The notes: a model not told the origin generated them from the letters alone. A stretch of 64,000 nt of DNA from a virus (IMGVR_UViG_3300043411_001314:1-64000); one strand, 5' to 3'; positions 34,268-53,867 are shown, numbered from the stretch's first letter. A program made the numbers and translations.

Positions 34268-34310
34268 TACCTATGAGGGGAGTTCATCGCGCCGGCCGAG
34301 TGAACCGGAG

Positions 34311-34339
34311 TGAATCACTACCCCTTCACCTGCCGAAGT
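34311..34339 (+). promoter_or_regulatory. Late sigma-28-like promoter (copy C), leaderless
   Basis: TGAATC at 34311-34316, 15 bases, GCCGAAGT at 34332-34339, then six bases to the GTG at 34346. The -10 differs from the others in one base (GCCGAA). Confidence 0.65.
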
Positions 34340-34345
34340 AAGAGC

Positions 34346-36250
34346 GTGGCATCCATCAGCACCATCGAGTTTGGGCCCAACGGTGTTCCGATCGTGAACG
34401 CCTCCGGCCTGGACCTGTCCACCATCGCGGGCGCCCTCGGCGGACTCCCGATGAACGACCCGACCACTCGTCGGATCGTGGACACGCTCGGCGGCTGGTC
34501 CGGTGCGCAGCGGCAGCGTAAGCCGCGGCTCGGTGGGATCCTGGACCGAGATCGCTACCTGACGCCGGTCACCCACTTCGAGAAGATCCGCACCGCCCGA
34601 GACGCCCTCCGTGACGACGTGATCGGTGGGGCGGCCGACACCACCGAGGCCCTGGCCCTCTCTTCCTGCAGCCTCTTCTCGGACGACGTCGACCACCAGG
34701 ACGTGTGGAACCAGTGGGCGGCGAAGATCGACCTCGACTCCAAGCTCCGTGAGTTCTGGCGGATCCTCTACACCGACTCCCAGGCCGTGGTCGCCCTGTG
34801 GTGGGAGCAGCAGACCTTCAAGGTCCGGGGCGTCGGCGACGAGGGCCGCCAGCGGCGCAAGCGGATCTCCATCCTGGCTCCGTCGGCCTGGTCCTTCATC
34901 GACTCGACGAAGGTGGTGCCGGTCGGCAGTCAGATGTTCAACCGTGGCGCCCTGGCCTACATCGCCGACGCCGACGAGGCCGAGATGCTCGATCGGGTCA
35001 TCGAGGCGCGCGAGGGGATGGCTCCCCCGAAGAACTCCCGCGGCATGCCGGTCCGCTTCAGCGAGCGGTCTGGTGGTCCGACGGCGCCGGCGGCGTTCGA
35101 CCCCGAGGACGACGCCGTGGCCGCCCGCCTGATCCGCCGGCGGTACAACCCACCCGAGCATGAGCGGACGAGACTCACCCAGCACGGCATCGCGTGGGAC
35201 AACCTGTTCCTCCTCGACAGCCGGATGGTGTTCCGCCACACCCTCACGAAGCCCGACTACGACCTGTTCCCAGACATCCGCCTGGAGGGCGCCTTCCCGC
35301 TCCTCGACCTGAAGGCCCAGCTCCGCCAGATGGACCGGGCCTTCCTCGTGGGTGGCGCCGCCTACATCCTGGTACTGACCCAGGGCTCGGACGCCCACCC
35401 CGGCCAACAGCCCGAGATCGACGCGCTGAAGGCCGGCGCCGCCATGCTCGGGTCGCTCCCACTCCTGGTTGGTGATCACCGACTGAACCTCGAGATCGTC
35501 ACCCCACCCATCGAAGCCACGATCAACAAGGCCAAGTGGGACACGATCGACGCCCGGCTCACCAGCCTGGCGTTCCGCACCTTCGCCGCCGGCGGCAGCG
35601 ACATGGACGACCCGATGAAGACGGGCCGCATCGTGGCCCGGGGGCTTGAGGGCCGCCGGCGCATGATGCGGCGTTCGATCGAGCAGAACGTGCTCAGCCC
35701 GATCTTCGAGTCCTCGCCGGAGCTCCTCACGCCGGCCAAGCTCCGGTTCCACCCGGCGCAGATCCACCTGGCGTTCGACCAGGGGTGGGCGAACCTCCTC
35801 CTCGACCTCCGTGAGGCCAACGAGCTCTCCCGTGAGACCATGCTCTCTCAGCTCGAGTTTGACCAGGCCGACGAGGCCATCGAGCGCGAGCGTGAGCGCA
35901 AGCTCTACGACGACATCTTCCAGACGTTCGTCCCTCACGGTGCCAACCCCAACGGTGGCGACCCAGAGGGCGATCCTGGCTCCACAAGGCTCGCTCAACG
36001 TATGGGTGGTCGCCGGCGAGGCGGGAACCGCGCCGGCGGCGGTGCAGCGCCCGGCTCAGGCCAAGGGCAGGAGTCGAGGGATCCCCGTCGGTCCCGTGAG
36101 CGGCCGGCCAACGACCTGCTGATGGACATGACGCGCGACGAGCTCATCGCCGAAGCGGCCCAGTGGGGGGTCCAGGGCCGGCACCAGATGAAGAAGCAGG
36201 ACCTGGTCGACGCCATCAGTGATGCACAGAACGGAACCGAAGATGACTGA
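34346..36250 (+). CDS. Portal protein, 634 aa
   Basis: The GTG at 34346 is chosen because the frame's earlier GTG (34310) lies inside the promoter motif; the start is six bases after the -10 box. The protein is a long, alpha/beta, low-hydrophobicity protein with the size and position of a portal, directly before the head protein gene. The C-terminus (TRDELIAEAAQWGVQGRHQMKKQDLVDAI) looks like a small SAP/Rho-N type nucleic-acid-binding helix-extension domain. It should form the DNA entry ring and dock the terminase. Confidence 0.75.
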   Translation: MASISTIEFGPNGVPIVNASGLDLSTIAGALGGLPMNDPTTRRIVDTLGGWSGAQRQRKPRLGGILDRDRYLTPVTHFEKIRTARDALRDDVIGGAADTTEALALSSCSLFSDDVDHQDVWNQWAAKIDLDSKLREFWRILYTDSQAVVALWWEQQTFKVRGVGDEGRQRRKRISILAPSAWSFIDSTKVVPVGSQMFNRGALAYIADADEAEMLDRVIEAREGMAPPKNSRGMPVRFSERSGGPTAPAAFDPEDDAVAARLIRRRYNPPEHERTRLTQHGIAWDNLFLLDSRMVFRHTLTKPDYDLFPDIRLEGAFPLLDLKAQLRQMDRAFLVGGAAYILVLTQGSDAHPGQQPEIDALKAGAAMLGSLPLLVGDHRLNLEIVTPPIEATINKAKWDTIDARLTSLAFRTFAAGGSDMDDPMKTGRIVARGLEGRRRMMRRSIEQNVLSPIFESSPELLTPAKLRFHPAQIHLAFDQGWANLLLDLREANELSRETMLSQLEFDQADEAIERERERKLYDDIFQTFVPHGANPNGGDPEGDPGSTRLAQRMGGRRRGGNRAGGGAAPGSGQGQESRDPRRSRERPANDLLMDMTRDELIAEAAQWGVQGRHQMKKQDLVDAISDAQNGTEDD

Positions 36251-37892
36251 CTCAAGCATCATCCAGCCAGGCTCCGATGGCCGGCTTCACATCCTGAGCC
36301 CGCTGGTGGTCTGCGACCAACTCCCAGACTGGGACCAACTCGACGACGTCCAACCGTCTGCCGACAAGGTGTACCTGCGGGCCCGCTACGTCCACGGTGG
36401 CCTGCCGGCGAACCAGAACGGCCACATCTTCCGCACGGAGCAGCTGGTCGACGCCCATCGCAACCTCCCGCACACCTACCTCAACTGGCTCCACCGGACC
36501 AAGCACACCATCGGCTGCTTCGTGGCGTCCCGGCTGGTGGACGAGGCCACCGGCGCGGTCATCGCCGACGCCAAGGCGGTCGACGCCTACGACTCAACCC
36601 CCTACGTCGACACCGTGGCCGCCTTGTGGCGGTTCGCGTACCCCGACGAGTACAAGGCGGTGCGCCGGGCCTATGACGCCGGCATGGGTTTCGTGTCGTG
36701 TGAAGCCTTCCCTCAGCAGAACACCTGCCCGACCTGCGACGCCACCTACGACTGGAAGGGCTACGTCTCTGACTCGTACTGCGAGCACCTCAACCGTCGG
36801 CGGGCGCCCCGCTGGCTGGAGGGCCCCACCTTCGTCGGCGGAGCCGTCGTGGTTCCTCCGGCCCGCCCGGGCTGGAAGGAGGCGTCCATCACCCGGATCG
36901 CCGACTGGATGCACAAGGATCCTTCCGCCGCCAGGGACCTGTTCACCCAGGTGGCTGCTGTCGCCCCCCACCTGTCCCAACTCGAGCTCGAGGCCATGAT
37001 GGGCGTGATCGTGGAGAACACGTCCCCAGACCTGCTGTCGGACCCCACCTCGGTCATCGCCCCACTGTGGGACAACCTCGCCGGCCGCTACGCCGGTCGG
37101 GTGGATCTGGTTCCCCCGGTTCCTGTTGCCGCCGCCGCTGCCGCCGGCGTGCTAGCCGCCGAGAACCTGGCGCCAGTGGAGCTCCACCGCTCCATGAACC
37201 TCGCTCATCGCCGGCCGCAGTCCCCGCCAACCGTTCGCCGGATGGCCATGGAGCTCGCGTCCCACCGGGTCGGAGACTCCGCCAAGTTCGACTCACTCGG
37301 TGGTGAAGTGGTGGCCGAGTGGGTCGAGCTCACAGCGGATGCCATGGCCGCCATCGACGCCGAGGGGGTGCACCCATCCAAGCCGTCCAAGCCGTCGGCT
37401 GTCATCGTGGTCCGTCCCTCCGTTGACGTGGCCGCCGACCTAGCGGCTGTGGCCGGCCTCCCGGTCGACGAGATCCATGTGACCATGGCGTTTCTGGGCC
37501 CGGTCGTCGACGGGGTGCTGGAGGGGTCGAGCTTCGGGCCCGACGAGATCGCCTCTGTCATCCGGTCTGTGGTCTCCAATAAGGCTCCACTGTCGGCGAC
37601 CGTGAACGGTCAAGGGGTATTCAACACCGGTGGCGGTGAGGTCGCCGTGTGGGCGGCCGTCGACTGCCCCGGGCTGGCCGAGCTCCACGTCGAGTTGATC
37701 GACGCCCTCCACCGGGTTGAGGCCCCCCACTCCCGCCAGCACGGGTTCACGGCCCACTCCACCGTCGCCGTTCAGCCGGCCGATGCACCAGTCCCCACTG
37801 TTCCCTCCGGCATGGCCTGGGCGGTGGACAGCGTGGAGTTGTGGTGGGAGGAGCTCGAGCCCCTGGTGATCCCATTCGATCAAGGGTCTTGA
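36243..37892 (+). CDS. Putative head protein fused to 2H phosphoesterase domain, 549 aa
   Basis: Residues 1-330 have the position and style of a phage head protein or capsid maturation protease, with a zinc knuckle CPTCDATYDW...YCEH at about 160-185. Residues 395-520 carry the two HxT motifs of 2H phosphoesterases: IHVTMAFLG (H412, T414) and FTAHSTVAV (H505, T507). Such domains cleave 2'-5' or cyclic phosphodiesters; Acb1 of phage T4 uses one against CBASS. ATG overlaps the portal stop. The exact role of the N-terminal part is uncertain. Confidence 0.7.
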   Translation: MTDSSIIQPGSDGRLHILSPLVVCDQLPDWDQLDDVQPSADKVYLRARYVHGGLPANQNGHIFRTEQLVDAHRNLPHTYLNWLHRTKHTIGCFVASRLVDEATGAVIADAKAVDAYDSTPYVDTVAALWRFAYPDEYKAVRRAYDAGMGFVSCEAFPQQNTCPTCDATYDWKGYVSDSYCEHLNRRRAPRWLEGPTFVGGAVVVPPARPGWKEASITRIADWMHKDPSAARDLFTQVAAVAPHLSQLELEAMMGVIVENTSPDLLSDPTSVIAPLWDNLAGRYAGRVDLVPPVPVAAAAAAGVLAAENLAPVELHRSMNLAHRRPQSPPTVRRMAMELASHRVGDSAKFDSLGGEVVAEWVELTADAMAAIDAEGVHPSKPSKPSAVIVVRPSVDVAADLAAVAGLPVDEIHVTMAFLGPVVDGVLEGSSFGPDEIASVIRSVVSNKAPLSATVNGQGVFNTGGGEVAVWAAVDCPGLAELHVELIDALHRVEAPHSRQHGFTAHSTVAVQPADAPVPTVPSGMAWAVDSVELWWEELEPLVIPFDQGS

Positions 37893-38150: not shown

Positions 38151-39182
38151 ATGGATAAGCAGACCCAGACGATGATCCTCGACGCAATCGCCCCTCACGC
38201 CATCTCCCTGCCCGTTGCCCAGGAGGTCGATGAGAAGGTCTGGCTCGAACAGCGCCGGAAGGGCATCGGTGGATCCGACGCCGGCACTGTGCTCGGGATC
38301 AACCCCTACCAGGGCCCGTTCGAGCTCTGGCTGTTGAAGACCAACCAGATCCCCGACCCAGACCTGTCCGACCGTGAGGCTGTCTACTGGGGGCACACCC
38401 TGGAGTCGATCGTCTGCGACGAGTTCGGACTCCGCAATGGCGTCCCGGTGATGAAGCCGAAGGTGATGTTCCAGAGCATCGAACGCCCCTGGCAACAGGT
38501 CAGCCTCGATGCCCTCACCCTGGATCCTGAAACCGGCGAGCCGGCCATCTTCGAGGCGAAGACGGCCTCGGAGTACTTGGCTTCCGAGTGGGCTGACGAC
38601 AGTGTGCCCCAGCACTACGAGGCCCAGTGCTACCACGCAGCGGCGGTGACCGGGATCCGCAACGTCTGGATCGGCTGCCTCATCGGCGGCCAGCGGTTCA
38701 GTGGTGAACGTGGGGCCGGCACGCGGGTCACTATCGACGAAGAGGTGCTGGCCGACGTGTGCGCCGCTGAGGAGCGGTTCTGGCATCAACACGTCCTGGG
38801 TGGTACCCAGCCACCACCCGACGCCTCGACGTCGTGCACCGACCTCCTTCGGGCTATGTGGGAGGCCAAGGAAGGCGAGGTCGAGCTTCCACCCAGGGGG
38901 CTCGACGTCGCCATCGGCTACCTGGACGCCCATCGTCGGCTGAATGCAGCGAAGGACGAGAAGGCCGAGCTCGGCAACTGGCTACGCCAGGAGATGGCGG
39001 CCAACACCATCGGCATGGTCCAGGGCGTCCAGGTGGCCACATTCAACAAGCAGCCCGACAACAGATTCGACCTCGAGACGTTCAAGGGTGATCACCCCGA
39101 CCTCTACGAGAAGTACTTCAAGAAGGGCAGCACCCGCGCCCTTCGAGTGAACCCCAAGCTCGCAAACATGAAGGAGAGTTGA
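38151..39182 (+). CDS. YqaJ-type viral exonuclease, 343 aa
   Basis: Lambda-exonuclease/RecE-like family (YqaJ). The nuclease motifs are WLEQRRKGIGGSDAGTVLG near the N-terminus, WGHTLESIV (E in the GxxxE element), DALT(L)DPETGE and IFEAKTA (the D...ExK metal site). It degrades one strand of double-stranded DNA and works with the RecT-type annealase encoded right behind it, for phage recombination or end processing. Confidence 0.88.
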   Translation: MDKQTQTMILDAIAPHAISLPVAQEVDEKVWLEQRRKGIGGSDAGTVLGINPYQGPFELWLLKTNQIPDPDLSDREAVYWGHTLESIVCDEFGLRNGVPVMKPKVMFQSIERPWQQVSLDALTLDPETGEPAIFEAKTASEYLASEWADDSVPQHYEAQCYHAAAVTGIRNVWIGCLIGGQRFSGERGAGTRVTIDEEVLADVCAAEERFWHQHVLGGTQPPPDASTSCTDLLRAMWEAKEGEVELPPRGLDVAIGYLDAHRRLNAAKDEKAELGNWLRQEMAANTIGMVQGVQVATFNKQPDNRFDLETFKGDHPDLYEKYFKKGSTRALRVNPKLANMKES

Positions 39183-39183
39183 C

Positions 39184-40059
39184 ATGGCAGCCCCCAAGCA
39201 GTCCCTGGCCGACGCAGCGAAGGGTGCCGCCAGCGGCGAACCCACGAGCGCCGTCGTACCCAAGGCACCCGAACCGCCCAGCATCGTCAAGATGTTGGAG
39301 TCGCCCGCGCAGCTGGAAGAGCTCCGCAAGGCCCTCCCCCCCGGCCTGAGCGTCGAGCGGTTCGCTCGCATGGCGCTCACGCTGGTGAAGTCCGATCCGG
39401 AAATGCTGGAGCTCGGCTCCACGCCCGAGGGGACCAAGTCGCTGATCACGGCGTTCCACCGCTGCGCCCAACTCGGGCTCGAGGTCGGCCCGGACCTGGG
39501 GCAGGCGTACCTGCTCCCCTTCCGCATGCGCGACACCCTTACCCTGCAGTTCATCCTGGGCTACAAGGGCATCCTAACCATGGCTCGTCGCAGCGGCGCC
39601 CTCCGCCGGCTCGACGTCCACGAGGTCTACCAGAACGACGAGTTCGAGTACTCCTACGGCCTCAACGGAACCCTGCATCACCGTCCCACCCTGGAGAAGG
39701 ATCGTGGGCCCATCATCTGCTACTACGGCTTCGCCGAGTTCACAGATGGCGGCTACTACTACACGGTGCTGACCCTCGACGACATCGACTCTCGCAAGCA
39801 ACGGTCGGCCTCAGTCAAGGCCGGGCGGAAGTCGCCCTGGGACACCGATCCGATCGCCATGTCCAAGAAGACGGTCGTCCGCGCCATGGCCCCGTATCTC
39901 CCCCTCTCCGTCGAGGCCCAGGACGCCATCGCTGACGACGAGAAGATGGTGGTCGGCGACCAGCTGTCCTACATCGACGTGGGCACCGTGGACCACACGC
40001 CCATGCGGGACACCCAGGAGCCGGTCCAGGAGGTCATCGAGGTGGACGCCGGTGGCTGA
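39184..40059 (+). CDS. recT: RecT-family single-strand annealing protein
   Basis: A 291-residue RecT homologue: SVERFARMALTLVKSDPEM, LGLEVGPDLGQAYLLPF and TLQFILGYKGILTMARRSG match the conserved RecT blocks. It anneals complementary single strands made by the upstream exonuclease. Placed two bases after that gene; likely translated from the same mRNA. Confidence 0.93.
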   Translation: MAAPKQSLADAAKGAASGEPTSAVVPKAPEPPSIVKMLESPAQLEELRKALPPGLSVERFARMALTLVKSDPEMLELGSTPEGTKSLITAFHRCAQLGLEVGPDLGQAYLLPFRMRDTLTLQFILGYKGILTMARRSGALRRLDVHEVYQNDEFEYSYGLNGTLHHRPTLEKDRGPIICYYGFAEFTDGGYYYTVLTLDDIDSRKQRSASVKAGRKSPWDTDPIAMSKKTVVRAMAPYLPLSVEAQDAIADDEKMVVGDQLSYIDVGTVDHTPMRDTQEPVQEVIEVDAGG

Positions 40060-40342
40060 GGACACGTTGTTCGGGCCGGCTGAAACCCCAGTGCGGATCT
40101 CGGCCGATCGGAAACGCACCCTTCGCAACACCTCAGCGCTGACGGCTGGCAAACACCCGGTGACAGGACTGCGCTTATCTTGGGTGGATGGTCAAACATG
40201 CGGCAACTGCGACCACCACTTCAGCCACACCCGCAACAAGACCTGGCACAAGTGCGACCTCAACGCCACCCGTGGCGCTGGTACCGACATCCGGGTGTCC
40301 TGGCCGGCCTGCACCGCATGGGTAGCTGAACAGGACTCGTGA
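40052..40342 (+). CDS. Cys/His-rich protein, 96 aa
   Basis: Contains TCGNCDHHFSHTRNKTWHKCDL and later WPACTAW, with four Cys and several His in zinc spacing. Homologues often sit next to recombination genes in actinophages; role unknown. GTG start inside the recT 3' end. Confidence 0.6.
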   Translation: MAEDTLFGPAETPVRISADRKRTLRNTSALTAGKHPVTGLRLSWVDGQTCGNCDHHFSHTRNKTWHKCDLNATRGAGTDIRVSWPACTAWVAEQDS

Positions 40343-40387
40343 TCCATCTCCCGCTCACCGAGTGGGATCAACAGAAAGGAAGCGGCT

Positions 40388-40516
40388 ATGCCGACGGAAG
40401 AGGAAATCAGAGAGCAGTTCGACTACCGGTCCCACCCTCCGGTGACCAGCGTCGACCTCGATGAAACCGAGGAGTCCGACGAGGAGTCCGACGACGTGGA
40501 CGACAAGACCGAGTGA
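40388..40516 (+). CDS. 42-aa acidic protein
   Basis: ATG preceded by AGAAAGGAAG. The C-terminal half is an acidic run (DETEESDEESDDVDDKTE). Overlaps the helicase GTG by four bases. Too short for a known family. Confidence 0.5.
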   Translation: MPTEEEIREQFDYRSHPPVTSVDLDETEESDEESDDVDDKTE

Positions 40517-41841
40517 GCGGCGGGGCCCGAGAGACCCCGTGCAACCTTGACGCCGAAGAGTCGCTGCTCGGGGCAATGATGCTGTCCCGAGCAGCGATCG
40601 ACGTCGCCTCGGAGCGGCTCTCTCCAGATGACTTCTACAAGCCCGCGCACGGCCACATCTACGACGCGATCACGTCCCTCGCCGGCCGGGCCGATGCCGT
40701 CGACCCCATCACGGTGGCCGACCACCTGGAGCGGGCCGACCTCCTTGAAGCCGTCGGCGGGGCGTCCCGACTCCTGGAGCTCCAGGCCGGCACGCCGGCC
40801 ACGTCGAGCGCCGGCCGCTACGCCAAGATCATCGAGGACCACTCGATCCTCCGCCGTCTGGCCGGGGTGGCGGGTGAGATCTCCGAGATCGCCTACAGCT
40901 CCCCCGACGACGTGCCGAAGGCGATCGACCAGGCCGAGACACTGGTGTTCGAGATTGCCCAGCACCGCGACACCGACACCACCAGCGCCCTCCCCGAGCT
41001 TCTCGACGCCACACTCGACTCCCTGGAGGCGCTCGCTGAGCGGGGGGATGAGATCACCGGCACCCCAACCGGCTACACCGACTTCGACGAGCTCACCGCT
41101 GGGCTCCAACCGAACGCCCTCATCGTACTCGGGGCCCGCCCCGGCATGGGCAAGACCAGCTTCGCCCTCGGCATGGCCTCCCACGCCGCCCTCGACCACC
41201 AGCTACCGGTCCTGTTCTTCTCCCTGGAGATGTCCAGAGTCGAGCTCACCCAGCGACTGCTGTGTGCGCACGCCGGCGTCGACTCCGTGAAGCTCCGCAA
41301 CGGTCGCCTCAATGAGTCCGACTGGAAGCGGATCGGGACGTCGGTCGGCAAGCTCGGGGACTCCCGCCTGTGGATCGACGACAACGCTCACGCCAGTGTC
41401 ATGGAGATCCGGGCCAAGGCCCGCCGCCTGCAGTCCAAGGTGGGCCAGCTGGGCATGATCGTGGTCGACTACATCCAGCTGATGAGCGGCACCGGTAGGT
41501 TCGAGAACCGCCAGACCGAGGTGGCCGAGATCAGCCGTGGCCTCAAGATCCTGGCCCGCGAGCTGCAGTGTCCGGTGGTCGCCCTGGCCCAGCTGAACCG
41601 GGCCCTTGAGCAGCGAGCAGACAAGCGCCCCATGCTCGCCGACCTTCGCGAGTCGGGCAGCCTTGAGGCCGACGCCGACATCGTGGTGTTCCTCTACCGG
41701 GACGAGCTCTACGACAACCAGTCACCAGACCGAGGTACCGCCGAGGTGTTGGTGATGAAGCATCGGGCCGGCCCCACCGGTATGGTGCGTCTGGCGTTCC
41801 TGGAGCACTACACCAAGTTCGCCAACATGGCTAGACCCTGA
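40513..41841 (+). CDS. dnaB: DnaB-like replicative helicase
   Basis: A 442-residue DnaB-family helicase: N-terminal domain (residues 8-110, NLDAEESLLGAMM...), Walker A GARPGMGKTS at 209-218, Walker B IVVDYIQLM, and the arginine-finger region. It unwinds DNA at the replication fork. No helicase loader or primase is visible in this window. The last gene of its strand run: the neighbour on the other strand starts two bases after its stop, so any terminator must overlap coding sequence. Confidence 0.93.
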   Translation: MSGGARETPCNLDAEESLLGAMMLSRAAIDVASERLSPDDFYKPAHGHIYDAITSLAGRADAVDPITVADHLERADLLEAVGGASRLLELQAGTPATSSAGRYAKIIEDHSILRRLAGVAGEISEIAYSSPDDVPKAIDQAETLVFEIAQHRDTDTTSALPELLDATLDSLEALAERGDEITGTPTGYTDFDELTAGLQPNALIVLGARPGMGKTSFALGMASHAALDHQLPVLFFSLEMSRVELTQRLLCAHAGVDSVKLRNGRLNESDWKRIGTSVGKLGDSRLWIDDNAHASVMEIRAKARRLQSKVGQLGMIVVDYIQLMSGTGRFENRQTEVAEISRGLKILARELQCPVVALAQLNRALEQRADKRPMLADLRESGSLEADADIVVFLYRDELYDNQSPDRGTAEVLVMKHRAGPTGMVRLAFLEHYTKFANMARP

Positions 41842-51638: not shown

Positions 51639-52343
51639 GTGGATGTTTCACCAGAAGCGAAGCGGGTCGCACACGACCTTCTGATTGACCTGACGGGTGA
51701 TCATCCAGCCGATTGCGTCATCTGCGCGACGGCCAACCACGATCTAGGAGACGCCCACGTGGCCGAGATCACCGAAGCTGACGTCACCGCCGCGGTGGCC
51801 AAGGCCGTAGCAGACAAGGAAGCCGAGTTCCAGGCGCAGATCTCCGATCTCCAAGCCAAGCTCGACTCCCGCGAGACCGAGTCCAAGGTTGCCGACCTTC
51901 AACGGCAGCTTGACGCCGAGGCGATCGCCCGCAAGGCCGCCGAGGATCAGCTCAACGACACCGTCGCCTTCCTGAGCGCCGAGCATGTCCGCCTCGAGGA
52001 TGAGGCTCGCATCGAGGCCGCCAAGGCCGAGCGTGTCCAGGCCGTCCGCGACCTGGACCTCTTCCCCGAGGATCAGCTCGAGGGTCGCATCGAGGCGAAC
52101 GCCGACCGCTGGGCGGCCATGGACGCCGACCAGTGGGGTGAGCAGCTCGCCGACTACCAGGCCGTGAAGGCCCGGATCGTCGACGCCCTGGGCGCCTCCC
52201 ACAACCCCGTCGGTGACGCCAAGGAGCCCGGGCAGTCCGCCCTCGGCGGCGCCGGCGTGAAGGACTCCAAGGACGACGGGGACTCCCGGAGCCTGGTGAC
52301 CGACATCATGTCCGACCGCTACGCCATCACCGGCAGAATCTGA
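51639..52343 (+). CDS. Putative scaffolding protein, 234 aa
   Basis: GTG start, leaderless. A Cys/His pair at the N-terminus (DCVICATANH) is followed by a long coiled coil (residues 40-140, VADKEAEFQAQISDLQAKLDSRETES...) and an acidic tail. Its position immediately before the head genes and its coiled-coil composition suit a capsid scaffold. Confidence 0.6.
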   Translation: MDVSPEAKRVAHDLLIDLTGDHPADCVICATANHDLGDAHVAEITEADVTAAVAKAVADKEAEFQAQISDLQAKLDSRETESKVADLQRQLDAEAIARKAAEDQLNDTVAFLSAEHVRLEDEARIEAAKAERVQAVRDLDLFPEDQLEGRIEANADRWAAMDADQWGEQLADYQAVKARIVDALGASHNPVGDAKEPGQSALGGAGVKDSKDDGDSRSLVTDIMSDRYAITGRI

Positions 52344-52356
52344 AAGGCCAAGTTCG

Positions 52357-52917
52357 ATGAGCTCCCTTGGACGCAACTTCTCGTTCCTCCAGTCGCCGCT
52401 GCCCGAGCACCGTCTCGGCCGGTACAAGACTGGCGCAACCGTCTTCCCGCAGGGCGCGCCCGTGGTCGCCACCGGCGCCATGGACACCGCCGACAAGCGT
52501 CGCACCGTGGCCCTGGCTGCGGCTGACGCTGACGTCGCCACCGTCACCGGTGGCCTCGGCGGCATCCTCGTGTGGGATGAGGCATGGACCAACTTCCACG
52601 GCTACGACCCGGTGCTGACCACGGCTTCGGACATCGACACCGTTCCCACCTACACGCCCGCTCAGGTCGTGCACGGCACCGAGGTCCGGGTCCAGTTCCG
52701 CAACACCATCGACCGATCGTTCCTGGGCCTCCGGGACTACGACGGCCGGACCATCATCAACCTCACCAGCATGGTGCTCGGTGACTACCTCACGCCCGGT
52801 GCCGGCGACGACACCAACGGCTACTGGAAGCGGACCACCACCGCCGGTGATGGTTGGCTTCGTGTTACCGCAATCGACACCACCAACGGGCTCGTCGAAG
52901 CCCAGATGCTCTTCTGA
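52357..52917 (+). CDS. Putative capsid decoration/head protein, 186 aa
   Basis: A beta-rich protein (LGRYKTGATVFPQGAPVVATG ... VTGGLGGILVWDEAWTN) placed between the scaffold and major capsid genes, typical of head decoration proteins. Ribosome site GAAAGG. No family certainty. Confidence 0.5.
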   Translation: MSSLGRNFSFLQSPLPEHRLGRYKTGATVFPQGAPVVATGAMDTADKRRTVALAAADADVATVTGGLGGILVWDEAWTNFHGYDPVLTTASDIDTVPTYTPAQVVHGTEVRVQFRNTIDRSFLGLRDYDGRTIINLTSMVLGDYLTPGAGDDTNGYWKRTTTAGDGWLRVTAIDTTNGLVEAQMLF

Positions 52918-52931
52918 GAGGGGAGAACACA

Positions 52932-53867
52932 ATGGGCAGCATCCGACAGATCGGATACAAGGATTTCGGCGGCAAGAACGCCGAACTCGCGCAGAAGATT
53001 GCGATCCTGGACGCCGAGGCTCGCGAGAACTGGTACAACGACGAGTGGCGTGCCGAGCACATCCACGACGTCCAGACCACCATCTTCGAGGGCTTCACCC
53101 ACGAGAGCCTCCTGGGCCTCATGTCGACGGTCGAGACCGTCGACGAGGGCGAGCGCATCGTCATCGAAGAGGTCCGGGGCCTGAAGGTCTGGTTCGTGTC
53201 CGCTGGTGGTCAGATCGACGAGTCGACCATCACCAGCGAGTCGGCCGAGCTTCGCCGGGACTTCGTGGGCTACCACGTCAACGAGCGCACCGAGAAGATC
53301 CGCTCCGGGTTCTCCCGGCAGATGGCGACCATGGCGACGCTGGCGATCAGCCAGATGGACGCCGCCATCAACCAGCGTCTCCTCGGGGCCTTCCAGGCCG
53401 CGATCGACAACGCCTCGCCGTACTACATCAGCGGCGCCGGTCTCTCCCTGCCGGCACTGAACACCGCCATCACCGAGGTCGTCGATGAGACCCTCGATGG
53501 TCCGGTGACGGTCGTCGGCCGTGGCACCATGGTCGACCAGATCGTGAACGAACTCCAAGACCTGAACGGGTTCACCCCCGCCAGCAACGAGGAGATCCTT
53601 CGCACCGGCCGGCTCGGTGAGTACCGGGGCACCAACATCGTCCGCCTGAAGAACCACAAGGATGCCGACGGCAACTCCTTCTTCCCGGACAACGAGATGT
53701 TCGTGCTCGGGGCCGACGCCTCGAAGACGGGCTTCTGGGGTGGCATGCACTCCGCCGAGTGGACCACCCCCGAGGGCTTCTACACCAACATCCTCGGCGT
53801 GCGCACCTTCGGGTGTGCGGTCCACCACCCGGAGCGTGCTCGCCGGATCGTGGACACCTCGCTCTGA
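52932..53867 (+). CDS. Major capsid protein, 311 aa
   Basis: Starts MGSIRQIGYKDFGGKNAELAQKI after GAGAGGGGAG. The blocks FTHESLLGLMSTVETVDEGERIVIEEVRGLKVWFVSAGG, STITSESAELRRDFVGYHVNE, NILGVRTFGCAVHHPERARRIVD match HK97-fold capsid proteins of actinophages. Forms the icosahedral shell. Followed by a terminator, so it is the last gene of this operon. Confidence 0.8.
   Translation: MGSIRQIGYKDFGGKNAELAQKIAILDAEARENWYNDEWRAEHIHDVQTTIFEGFTHESLLGLMSTVETVDEGERIVIEEVRGLKVWFVSAGGQIDESTITSESAELRRDFVGYHVNERTEKIRSGFSRQMATMATLAISQMDAAINQRLLGAFQAAIDNASPYYISGAGLSLPALNTAITEVVDETLDGPVTVVGRGTMVDQIVNELQDLNGFTPASNEEILRTGRLGEYRGTNIVRLKNHKDADGNSFFPDNEMFVLGADASKTGFWGGMHSAEWTTPEGFYTNILGVRTFGCAVHHPERARRIVDTSL

What the first reader, a model, noticed from the sequence alone, without database searches (positions are those of the whole stretch)
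36243..37892. 2H phosphoesterase domain fused to a head protein
A C-terminal domain with both HxT motifs (H412-T414 and H505-T507) is joined to a protein encoded right after the portal. T4 Acb1 and other 2H enzymes destroy CBASS nucleotides or 2'-5' RNA. If the fusion is packaged in the virion or cleaved during maturation, the enzyme could be delivered with the DNA, protecting the phage at once.
Basis: partly seen in the sequence, partly recalled or inferred. Interest (0 to 1): 0.65.

Follow-up and report, generated by a model that had tools for sequence, protein, structure and literature searches.

The report
Capsid protease carrying a 2H enzyme
An uncultured phage's shell-maturing protease carries a second, apparently intact RNA/nucleotide-cutting (2H) enzyme at its tail end, one case of a wider habit in which phages attach this enzyme to proteins inside their heads, probably to disarm bacterial defences.

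Summary
Window 36243-37892 encodes 549 aa with HxT motifs at H412-T414 and H505-T507; the C-terminus matches Pfam 2_5_RNA_ligase2 (E 1.3e-13) and folds as a 2H phosphoesterase (pLDDT 93.9; nearest solved structures are LigT/CPDase enzymes, Acb1 more distant). The "head protein" can be named more exactly: its N-terminal domain is a capsid maturation protease. The model's best PDB match is T4 gp21, then herpesvirus assemblins; H84 and S152 are invariant in 48 relatives; a portal-family gene lies upstream in 50 of 50 loci. In 28 phage records carrying this protease, all 8 2H domains above the Pfam cut-off lie inside the protease gene. The tree favours at least two origins of the fusion: C-terminal here and in one relative, N-terminal in others. 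Close 2H relatives sit in portals, other proteases, MuF proteins and protease-capsid polyproteins, also in cultured Gordonia, Arthrobacter and Streptomyces phages. 2H-MuF and 2H-portal fusions with an injected anti-defence role were already proposed (Iyer 2017, 2022), so this is a new variant of a known kind. Virion delivery and substrate are unproven. Because a prohead protease is a reported CBASS trigger, a testable "trigger carries its own antidote" model follows.

The parts
36243..37892 (+). Gene for the 549-aa fusion: capsid maturation protease domain, flexible linker, C-terminal 2H phosphoesterase domain
36285..37052 (+). Stretch modelled as the protease domain (residues 15-270); AlphaFold pLDDT 85.5; best PDB match T4 gp21 protease
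36492..36494 (+). H84, invariant in 48 relatives, proposed catalytic His of the protease
   Evidence: catalytic role inferred
36696..36704 (+). S152-C-E154; S152 and E154 invariant, S152 proposed catalytic Ser. In phage GX15bay an intein is inserted immediately before the equivalent Ser
   Evidence: catalytic role inferred
36726..36788 (+). C162..C165..C180-x-H182 cluster, each at least 90% conserved, resembling a zinc site
   Evidence: metal binding inferred
37053..37358 (+). Non-conserved Ala/Pro-rich linker between protease and 2H domains; possible site of self-cleavage
   Evidence: sequence; cleavage is speculation
37359..37889 (+). 2H phosphoesterase domain as modelled (residues 373-549); Pfam PF13563 match at residues 410-536
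37476..37484 (+). First catalytic motif H412-V-T414
37755..37763 (+). Second catalytic motif H505-S-T507
34310..36250 (+). Upstream portal-family gene, 38-42% identical to the intein-split GX15bay gene; ends in a Rho_N domain
51639..52343 (+). Scaffold-like coiled-coil protein; in relatives it directly follows the protease
52357..52917 (+). Conserved head protein between scaffold and major capsid protein (decoration-like)
52854..53867 (+). Major capsid protein candidate (family profile matches PDB 6wkk gp27 major capsid protein, E 2.9e-6); the true start may lie downstream of this ORF start

Best explanation
The gene encodes a bifunctional head protein. The N-terminal domain is a T4 gp21/assemblin-type serine protease that matures the prohead (Ser152/His84 proposed). 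The C-terminal domain is an active LigT-type 2H phosphodiesterase, joined by a flexible linker. The protease is built into the prohead, so the 2H enzyme rides into the head interior as cargo. There, or after release by the protease and injection with the DNA, or while new heads are being made, it cuts 2',3'-cyclic, 2'-5' or cyclic oligonucleotide bonds made by nucleotide- or RNA-based host defences. My step-by-step estimates: 2H fold and intact tetrad 0.97; protease 0.9; enzymatically active 0.85; inside the prohead 0.75; counter-defence role 0.55; carried into the next host by the virion 0.35.
For: 2H domain: PF13563 E 1.3e-13; model pLDDT 93.9; Foldseek 5h7e drCPDase E 1.6e-9 and E. coli LigT E 7.5e-8. 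H412, T414 and H505 kept in 62/62 relatives, T507 as T or S in 61/62. Protease: Foldseek best match T4 gp21 5jbl, E 1.3e-3, probability 1.00, then HCMV assemblin; prohead proteases among BFVD matches; H84/S152/E154 invariant; portal upstream in 50/50 loci; scaffold and major capsid genes follow in most relatives, the canonical order (PMC5513430); no S78 or XkdF protease elsewhere in 28 records. Head cargo: in 28 records all eight 2H domains above the cut-off lie inside the protease ORF, which is 1.4-9% of each record (product about 3e-13 if independent, which they are not). The fusion appears to have arisen at least twice, in opposite order. Other carriers are portal C-termini, MuF proteins, other proteases and the N-terminal side of capsid proteins, which face or plausibly face the head interior (topology from general knowledge). 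Precedent: gp21 sits in the T4 prohead core at about 55 copies and T4 IPI is injected (PMC9958956); SPN3US protease removes its own C-terminal propeptide (PMC7411985). No RNA ligase family match in this genome.
Against: No experiment shows the domain in a virion. In T4 most core material is digested and thought to leave the prohead, so the cargo may be lost before packaging. The linker has no identified cleavage site. The protease fold match is moderate (E 1.3e-3, TM 0.41/0.60) and no sequence profile supports it. No substrate is known. First-motif conservation is inflated, because one search pattern contained that motif.
Confidence: 0.5

Rival explanations
1. Trigger carries its own antidote. 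The 2H enzyme acts inside the infected cell during late head assembly. It destroys the cyclic-nucleotide alarm that the prohead protease itself or other head proteins set off (CBASS or similar), at the place and time the alarm is raised. No virion delivery is needed.
For: [quoted passage not shown] PMC12409349). Capsid mutations let other phages avoid CBASS. The fusion ties enzyme dose to protease dose. A similar argument for ADP-ribosyltransferase fusions is in PMC9503650.
Against: The domain is closer to LigT than to Acb1. Portal, MuF and capsid carriers are common too, so nothing singles out the protease. No host defence system is known for this phage.
Confidence: 0.25
2. RNA repair: the 2H domain opens 2',3'-cyclic phosphate ends left by defence RNases on tRNA, so that RNA can be healed.
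For: LigT/CPDase enzymes are the nearest structures; this is the known chemistry of many 2H proteins (PMC5512222).
Against: No RNA_ligase (PF09414) or RtcB match in the 117.5-kb record, which may be incomplete. Two of eight fusion-bearing records have sub-cut-off RNA_ligase matches only. Iyer 2017 likewise never saw these 2H versions with RNA ligases. It does not explain the fusion to head proteins.
Confidence: 0.1
3. The domain is an attached RNase-type effector that cuts host RNA after injection.
For: Iyer 2017 considered a Usb1-like RNase role because 2H and PBECR RNase domains share fusion partners; human Usb1 structures are weaker fold matches (E 9.7e-5).
Against: Closest relatives are phosphodiesterases on cyclic or 2'-5' linkages; no direct evidence.
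Confidence: 0.08
4. Structural or assembly role only: the 2H domain acts as a folded spacer or scaffold-like tail, and its chemistry is irrelevant.
For: Relatives without 2H carry another C-terminal tail at the same place, so a bulky C-terminus may be tolerated.
Against: All four catalytic positions are kept at great divergence, including in the seven fusions found through the protease rather than through 2H motifs; many relatives lack the domain altogether.
Confidence: 0.07

Closest known systems
2H domains fused to MuF or portal proteins in phage 'polyvalent' proteins (Iyer et al. 2017, PMC5512222; 2022, PMC9503650)
   Same: Same idea and same kind of enzyme: a 2H domain attached to a head protein, predicted to be packaged and to counter nucleotide signalling
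   Different: Here the carrier is the capsid maturation protease, of a family without a Pfam model match, with 2H at its C-terminus; the cited text names MuF and portal for 2H, and names the capsid-processing serine peptidase for Nudix domains
Head proteins of cultured phages holding this 2H: Arthrobacter Edmundo gp18 and Kovu gp20, Microbacterium ValentiniPuff gp7 (2H-XkdF); Gordonia Tiamoceli gp18; Streptomyces YDN12 gp12
   Same: Homologous 2H domain in a head maturation or head morphogenesis protein; PHROGs phrog_14859 and phrog_18402
   Different: In the three XkdF fusions the order is reversed (2H first); the proteases belong to other families; often labelled RNA ligase or aldolase
T4 gp21 prohead protease
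   Same: Predicted fold of the N-terminal domain (best PDB match) and the same place in head assembly
   Different: gp21 has no 2H domain; the family here adds a CxxC..CxH cluster and has no detectable sequence similarity to solved proteases
LigT/ThpR RNA 2',3'-cyclic phosphodiesterase (PDB 5h7e, 1vdx, 1iuh, 5ldm)
   Same: Same fold and HxT/HxT tetrad; nearest solved relatives by profile and by structure
   Different: Those are stand-alone housekeeping enzymes
Acb1 anti-CBASS nuclease (T4, FBB1)
   Same: 2H fold and HxT/HxT tetrad
   Different: Only a distant structural match (E 3.4e-4 against 1.6e-9 for LigT-type) and no significant sequence match (E 0.12 at best); Acb1 is a free enzyme with a C-terminal lid
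T4 injected head proteins (IPI; gpAlt)
   Same: Enzyme or effector placed in the prohead core and processed by the prohead protease
   Different: Separate proteins with an N-terminal targeting or cleaved peptide, not fused to the protease (gpAlt injection from PMC5512222)

Membership tests
2H phosphoesterase superfamily | Two HxT/S motifs on a duplicated beta-sheet fold | tested here: met
   H412-T414, H505-T507; PF13563 E 1.3e-13; model matches 2H structures
2H phosphoesterase superfamily | Catalytic activity | not testable with these tools
   Catalytic residues conserved in 62 relatives; no assay
LigT/ThpR (RNA 2',3'-cyclic phosphodiesterase) family | Closest sequence and structure relationship among solved 2H enzymes | tested here: met
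   PDB profile search E about 1e-11 for PH0099 and drCPDase; Foldseek E 1.6e-9. Nearest kin, not proof of the same substrate
Acb1 (anti-CBASS, PF23474) | Sequence match to the Acb1 family | tested here: not met
   No PF23474 match for the window protein even at E up to 5; profile against Acb1 chains E 0.12-0.73
Acb1 (anti-CBASS, PF23474) | Cleavage of 3'3'-cGAMP and related CBASS nucleotides | not testable with these tools
   Needs assay
Capsid maturation protease (gp21/HK97/assemblin fold) | Fold | tested here: met
   T4 gp21 top hit E 1.3e-3, probability 1.00; assemblins next; prohead proteases in BFVD at E 3.4e-6 and lower ranks
Capsid maturation protease (gp21/HK97/assemblin fold) | Conserved Ser and His | tested here: met
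   S152 and H84 invariant in 48 sequences; their alignment with the gp21 active site was not inspected
Capsid maturation protease (gp21/HK97/assemblin fold) | Gene order portal - protease - scaffold - major capsid protein | tested here: met
   Portal upstream in 50/50; scaffold and MCP follow in about 40 loci; in the window they lie 14 kb downstream
Pfam Peptidase_S78 / S78_2 (XkdF) | Profile match | tested here: not met
   No match for the window protein or anywhere in 28 records
Virion-delivered (polyvalent-type) phage effector | Enzyme domain fused to a head protein | tested here: met
Virion-delivered (polyvalent-type) phage effector | Present in the virion and injected | not testable with these tools
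   Needs virion proteomics or an injection assay

The most novel reading that the evidence does not exclude
The phage protein class reported to set off CBASS, the prohead protease, carries in the same chain the enzyme that destroys the alarm nucleotide. Enzyme and trigger are then made in equal amounts, at the same place and time. The recurring attachment of 2H domains to head proteins would be a general phage answer to capsid-sensing, nucleotide-signalling immunity.
Probability: 0.2. Interest if true: 0.85.

Novelty: new variant of a known kind. Interest (0 to 1): 0.57.

Why it matters
Capsid-sensing CBASS and related defences are a live question: head proteins switch them on, and phages must switch them off. 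A 2H enzyme welded to the prohead protease, apparently gained at least twice in one protease family and repeatedly on other head proteins, gives a concrete system to test whether phages package, or co-assemble, the antidote with the head. Culturable Gordonia, Arthrobacter and Streptomyces phages hold homologous fusions, so the test is practical. Many of these genes are labelled 'RNA ligase' or 'aldolase', which hides the pattern.

Tried and rejected
Direct search of viral contigs with the single protein found nothing; alignments were needed. The protease family was not found in 84,980 bacterial and archaeal genomes (only one short pattern was used). Sequence-profile comparison of the protease with S78, XkdF and Mu-I was not significant, but S78 against XkdF also failed, so the test has no power and was not counted. 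A PDB profile search with the protease alignment gave nothing. Portal identity was not confirmed by profile. I rejected 'Acb1 family member' (sequence test not met) and 'chance HxT pair' (domain profile and fold both match). I looked for published virion proteomics of 2H-head fusions and found none in the held library.

Full report
OBSERVATION. The ORF starts at ATG 36243 and stops at 37892. Motif pairs of this spacing occur by chance in 4 of 282 window ORFs, so the claim rests on the domain. Pfam PF13563 matches residues 410-536 with E 1.3e-13. An AlphaFold model of residues 373-549 built from 57 relatives has pLDDT 93.9, and its best solved matches are LigT/CPDase 2H enzymes (5h7e E 1.6e-9). 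Acb1 appears at 3.4e-4. A profile search of PDB sequences ranks them the same way (LigT-type about 1e-11, a coronavirus 2'-5' phosphodiesterase 1.9e-5, Acb1 0.12).

WHAT THE HEAD PROTEIN IS. The N-terminal half has no Pfam or PHROGs match. One published relative, phage GX15bay, has it split by an intein and mislabelled 'portal protein'. IMG/VR scans with two alignments gave 59 loci in the larger scan. A 48-sequence alignment shows invariant H84, S152 and E154. The model (pLDDT 85.5) has T4 gp21 protease as best PDB match (E 1.3e-3, probability 1.00, TM 0.60 on the target), followed by herpesvirus assemblins. In the viral library, prohead proteases appear from E 3.4e-6 downwards, although the very top matches are unnamed or uncharacterised. 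In GX15bay the intein sits directly before the Ser equivalent to S152, as expected of an active-site insertion (inference). A portal-family gene lies upstream on the same strand in 50 of 50 loci. Scaffold-like, decoration-like and major-capsid families follow in about 40 loci, and the capsid family's profile matches a solved major capsid protein (6wkk, E 2.9e-6). This is the canonical place of the maturation protease (PMC5513430). None of 28 records holds an S78 or XkdF protease. I therefore call it a capsid maturation protease of the gp21/assemblin fold (about 0.9), while noting that it fails the sequence-profile tests for S78 and XkdF.

THE 2H DOMAIN IS SPECIFICALLY ATTACHED TO HEAD PROTEINS. 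The cleanest test selects records by the protease and then looks for 2H anywhere in them. Of 28 records, 8 hold a 2H domain over the Pfam cut-off, and all 8 lie inside the protease ORF. That ORF is 1.4-9% of each record. In the window and in L006 the 2H domain is C-terminal; in L101, L105, L109/L112, L111 and L116 it is N-terminal. In the 2H tree the window and L006 are sisters (support 94), while L101, L105, L111 and L116 group apart with a portal-borne 2H (support 93); L109 is unplaced. The tree therefore favours at least two separate fusions in one protease family, in opposite order. The tree is a quick search with long branches, and its starred branches alone do not exclude one origin for this group.

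WIDER PATTERN. A scan with four 2H sequences gave 129 relatives (80 kept, 56 non-redundant). Nearly all sit inside large proteins: Phage_portal 11, Portal_Mu 2, XkdF 13, MuF 8, S78 4, Mu-I protease 3, Phage_capsid 3 and an encapsulin-like capsid 1, with some proteins counted twice (positions). In every portal fusion the 2H lies after the portal domain; in every capsid fusion it lies before the capsid domain. From general knowledge the portal C-terminus, MuF, the protease and the capsid N-terminal arm face the prohead interior, so the shared feature is probably the head lumen (inference). The query set came from head fusions, which biases this scan; the 28-record test does not share that bias. 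On the 2H tree the carrier label changes 18 times (shuffled mean 27.7; minimum 6), so the domain has been shuffled among carriers. The same domain is in at least 110 cultured phage records, mostly Gordonia, Streptomyces and Arthrobacter.

CATALYTIC INTEGRITY. H412, T414 and H505 are kept in 62 of 62 sequences, and T507 is T in 57, S in 4 and A in 1. One scan pattern contained the first motif, which inflates its figure; the seven fusions in the protease family were found without it or are the window itself, and keep both motifs (T507 as S in L006).

MECHANISM. Shown: fusion, fold, conserved tetrad, gene context. Inferred: the protease is built into the prohead, as gp21 is at about 55 copies in T4 (PMC9958956), and carries 2H with it; the linker allows self-cleavage, as for the C-terminal propeptide of the SPN3US protease (PMC7411985). 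Not shown: whether the enzyme stays in the mature head and is injected. A second model needs no injection. The Bas13 prohead protease is reported to stimulate a CBASS cyclase (PMC11312562; PMC12409349), so a 2H enzyme on the protease could destroy the alarm where it is raised. RNA repair is less likely for this phage: no RNA ligase family match was found in its record.

NOVELTY. Iyer et al. 2017 describe 2H domains fused to MuF or portal proteins and suggest RNase or anti-nucleotide-signalling roles (PMC5512222); the 2022 paper repeats this with injection and adds Nudix domains on the capsid-processing peptidase (PMC9503650). PHROGs phrog_18402 already groups a 2H with a 'head maturation protease', and RefSeq labels several such genes that way. 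New here: the carrier is a protease family without a Pfam match, the C-terminal fusion, the likely repeated gain in opposite order, and the link to protease-triggered CBASS. Hence a new variant of a known kind.

Noticed in passing
window 36125-36229: The portal-family gene ends in a Rho_N (SAP-like) domain (E 1.6e-5), another domain type listed in phage polyvalent proteins, at the portal C-terminus.
   Followed up: partly
L002 (MK557849.1 22352-25174 and 25301-27283): GX15bay genes annotated 'PhoH' and 'portal protein' are the portal-family protein and the protease, each interrupted by an intein; the protease intein sits directly before the putative catalytic Ser.
   Followed up: partly
window 38151-41841: RecE-like exonuclease, a RecT-like gene and a DnaB-like helicase lie between protease and scaffold, so the head module is split by about 14 kb, unlike L006 and most relatives.
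   Followed up: partly
L013, L047, L051, L061: Single ORFs of 900-1125 aa with 2H at the N-terminus and a capsid domain at the C-terminus (S78-like protease between them in L061): 2H as part of a capsid polyprotein.
   Followed up: partly
L039, L070, L043, L091: 2H domain together with Zeta-toxin, ART-PolyVal/GNAT, or portal-MuF-ADP-ribosyltransferase domains in one protein.
   Followed up: no
L007, L008, L010, L011, L002 C-termini; L132:4212-5051: A conserved tail (DGSFPIxNAxDLKNAIxAxGRAKNPAAAKAHIxKRA) occupies the 2H position in relatives without 2H, recurs in separate genes between portal and protease, and is followed by 2H in L006; possibly a head-targeting module.
   Followed up: no
Arthrobacter phage Laroye gp18 and kin: A homologous 2H-bearing gene of the XkdF-fusion family is annotated 'aldolase class I' and was described as an inserted aldolase gene.
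   Followed up: partly
L102, L104: Protease relatives with a roughly 360-aa C-terminal extension containing two copies of the conserved tail-like module and no 2H.
   Followed up: no
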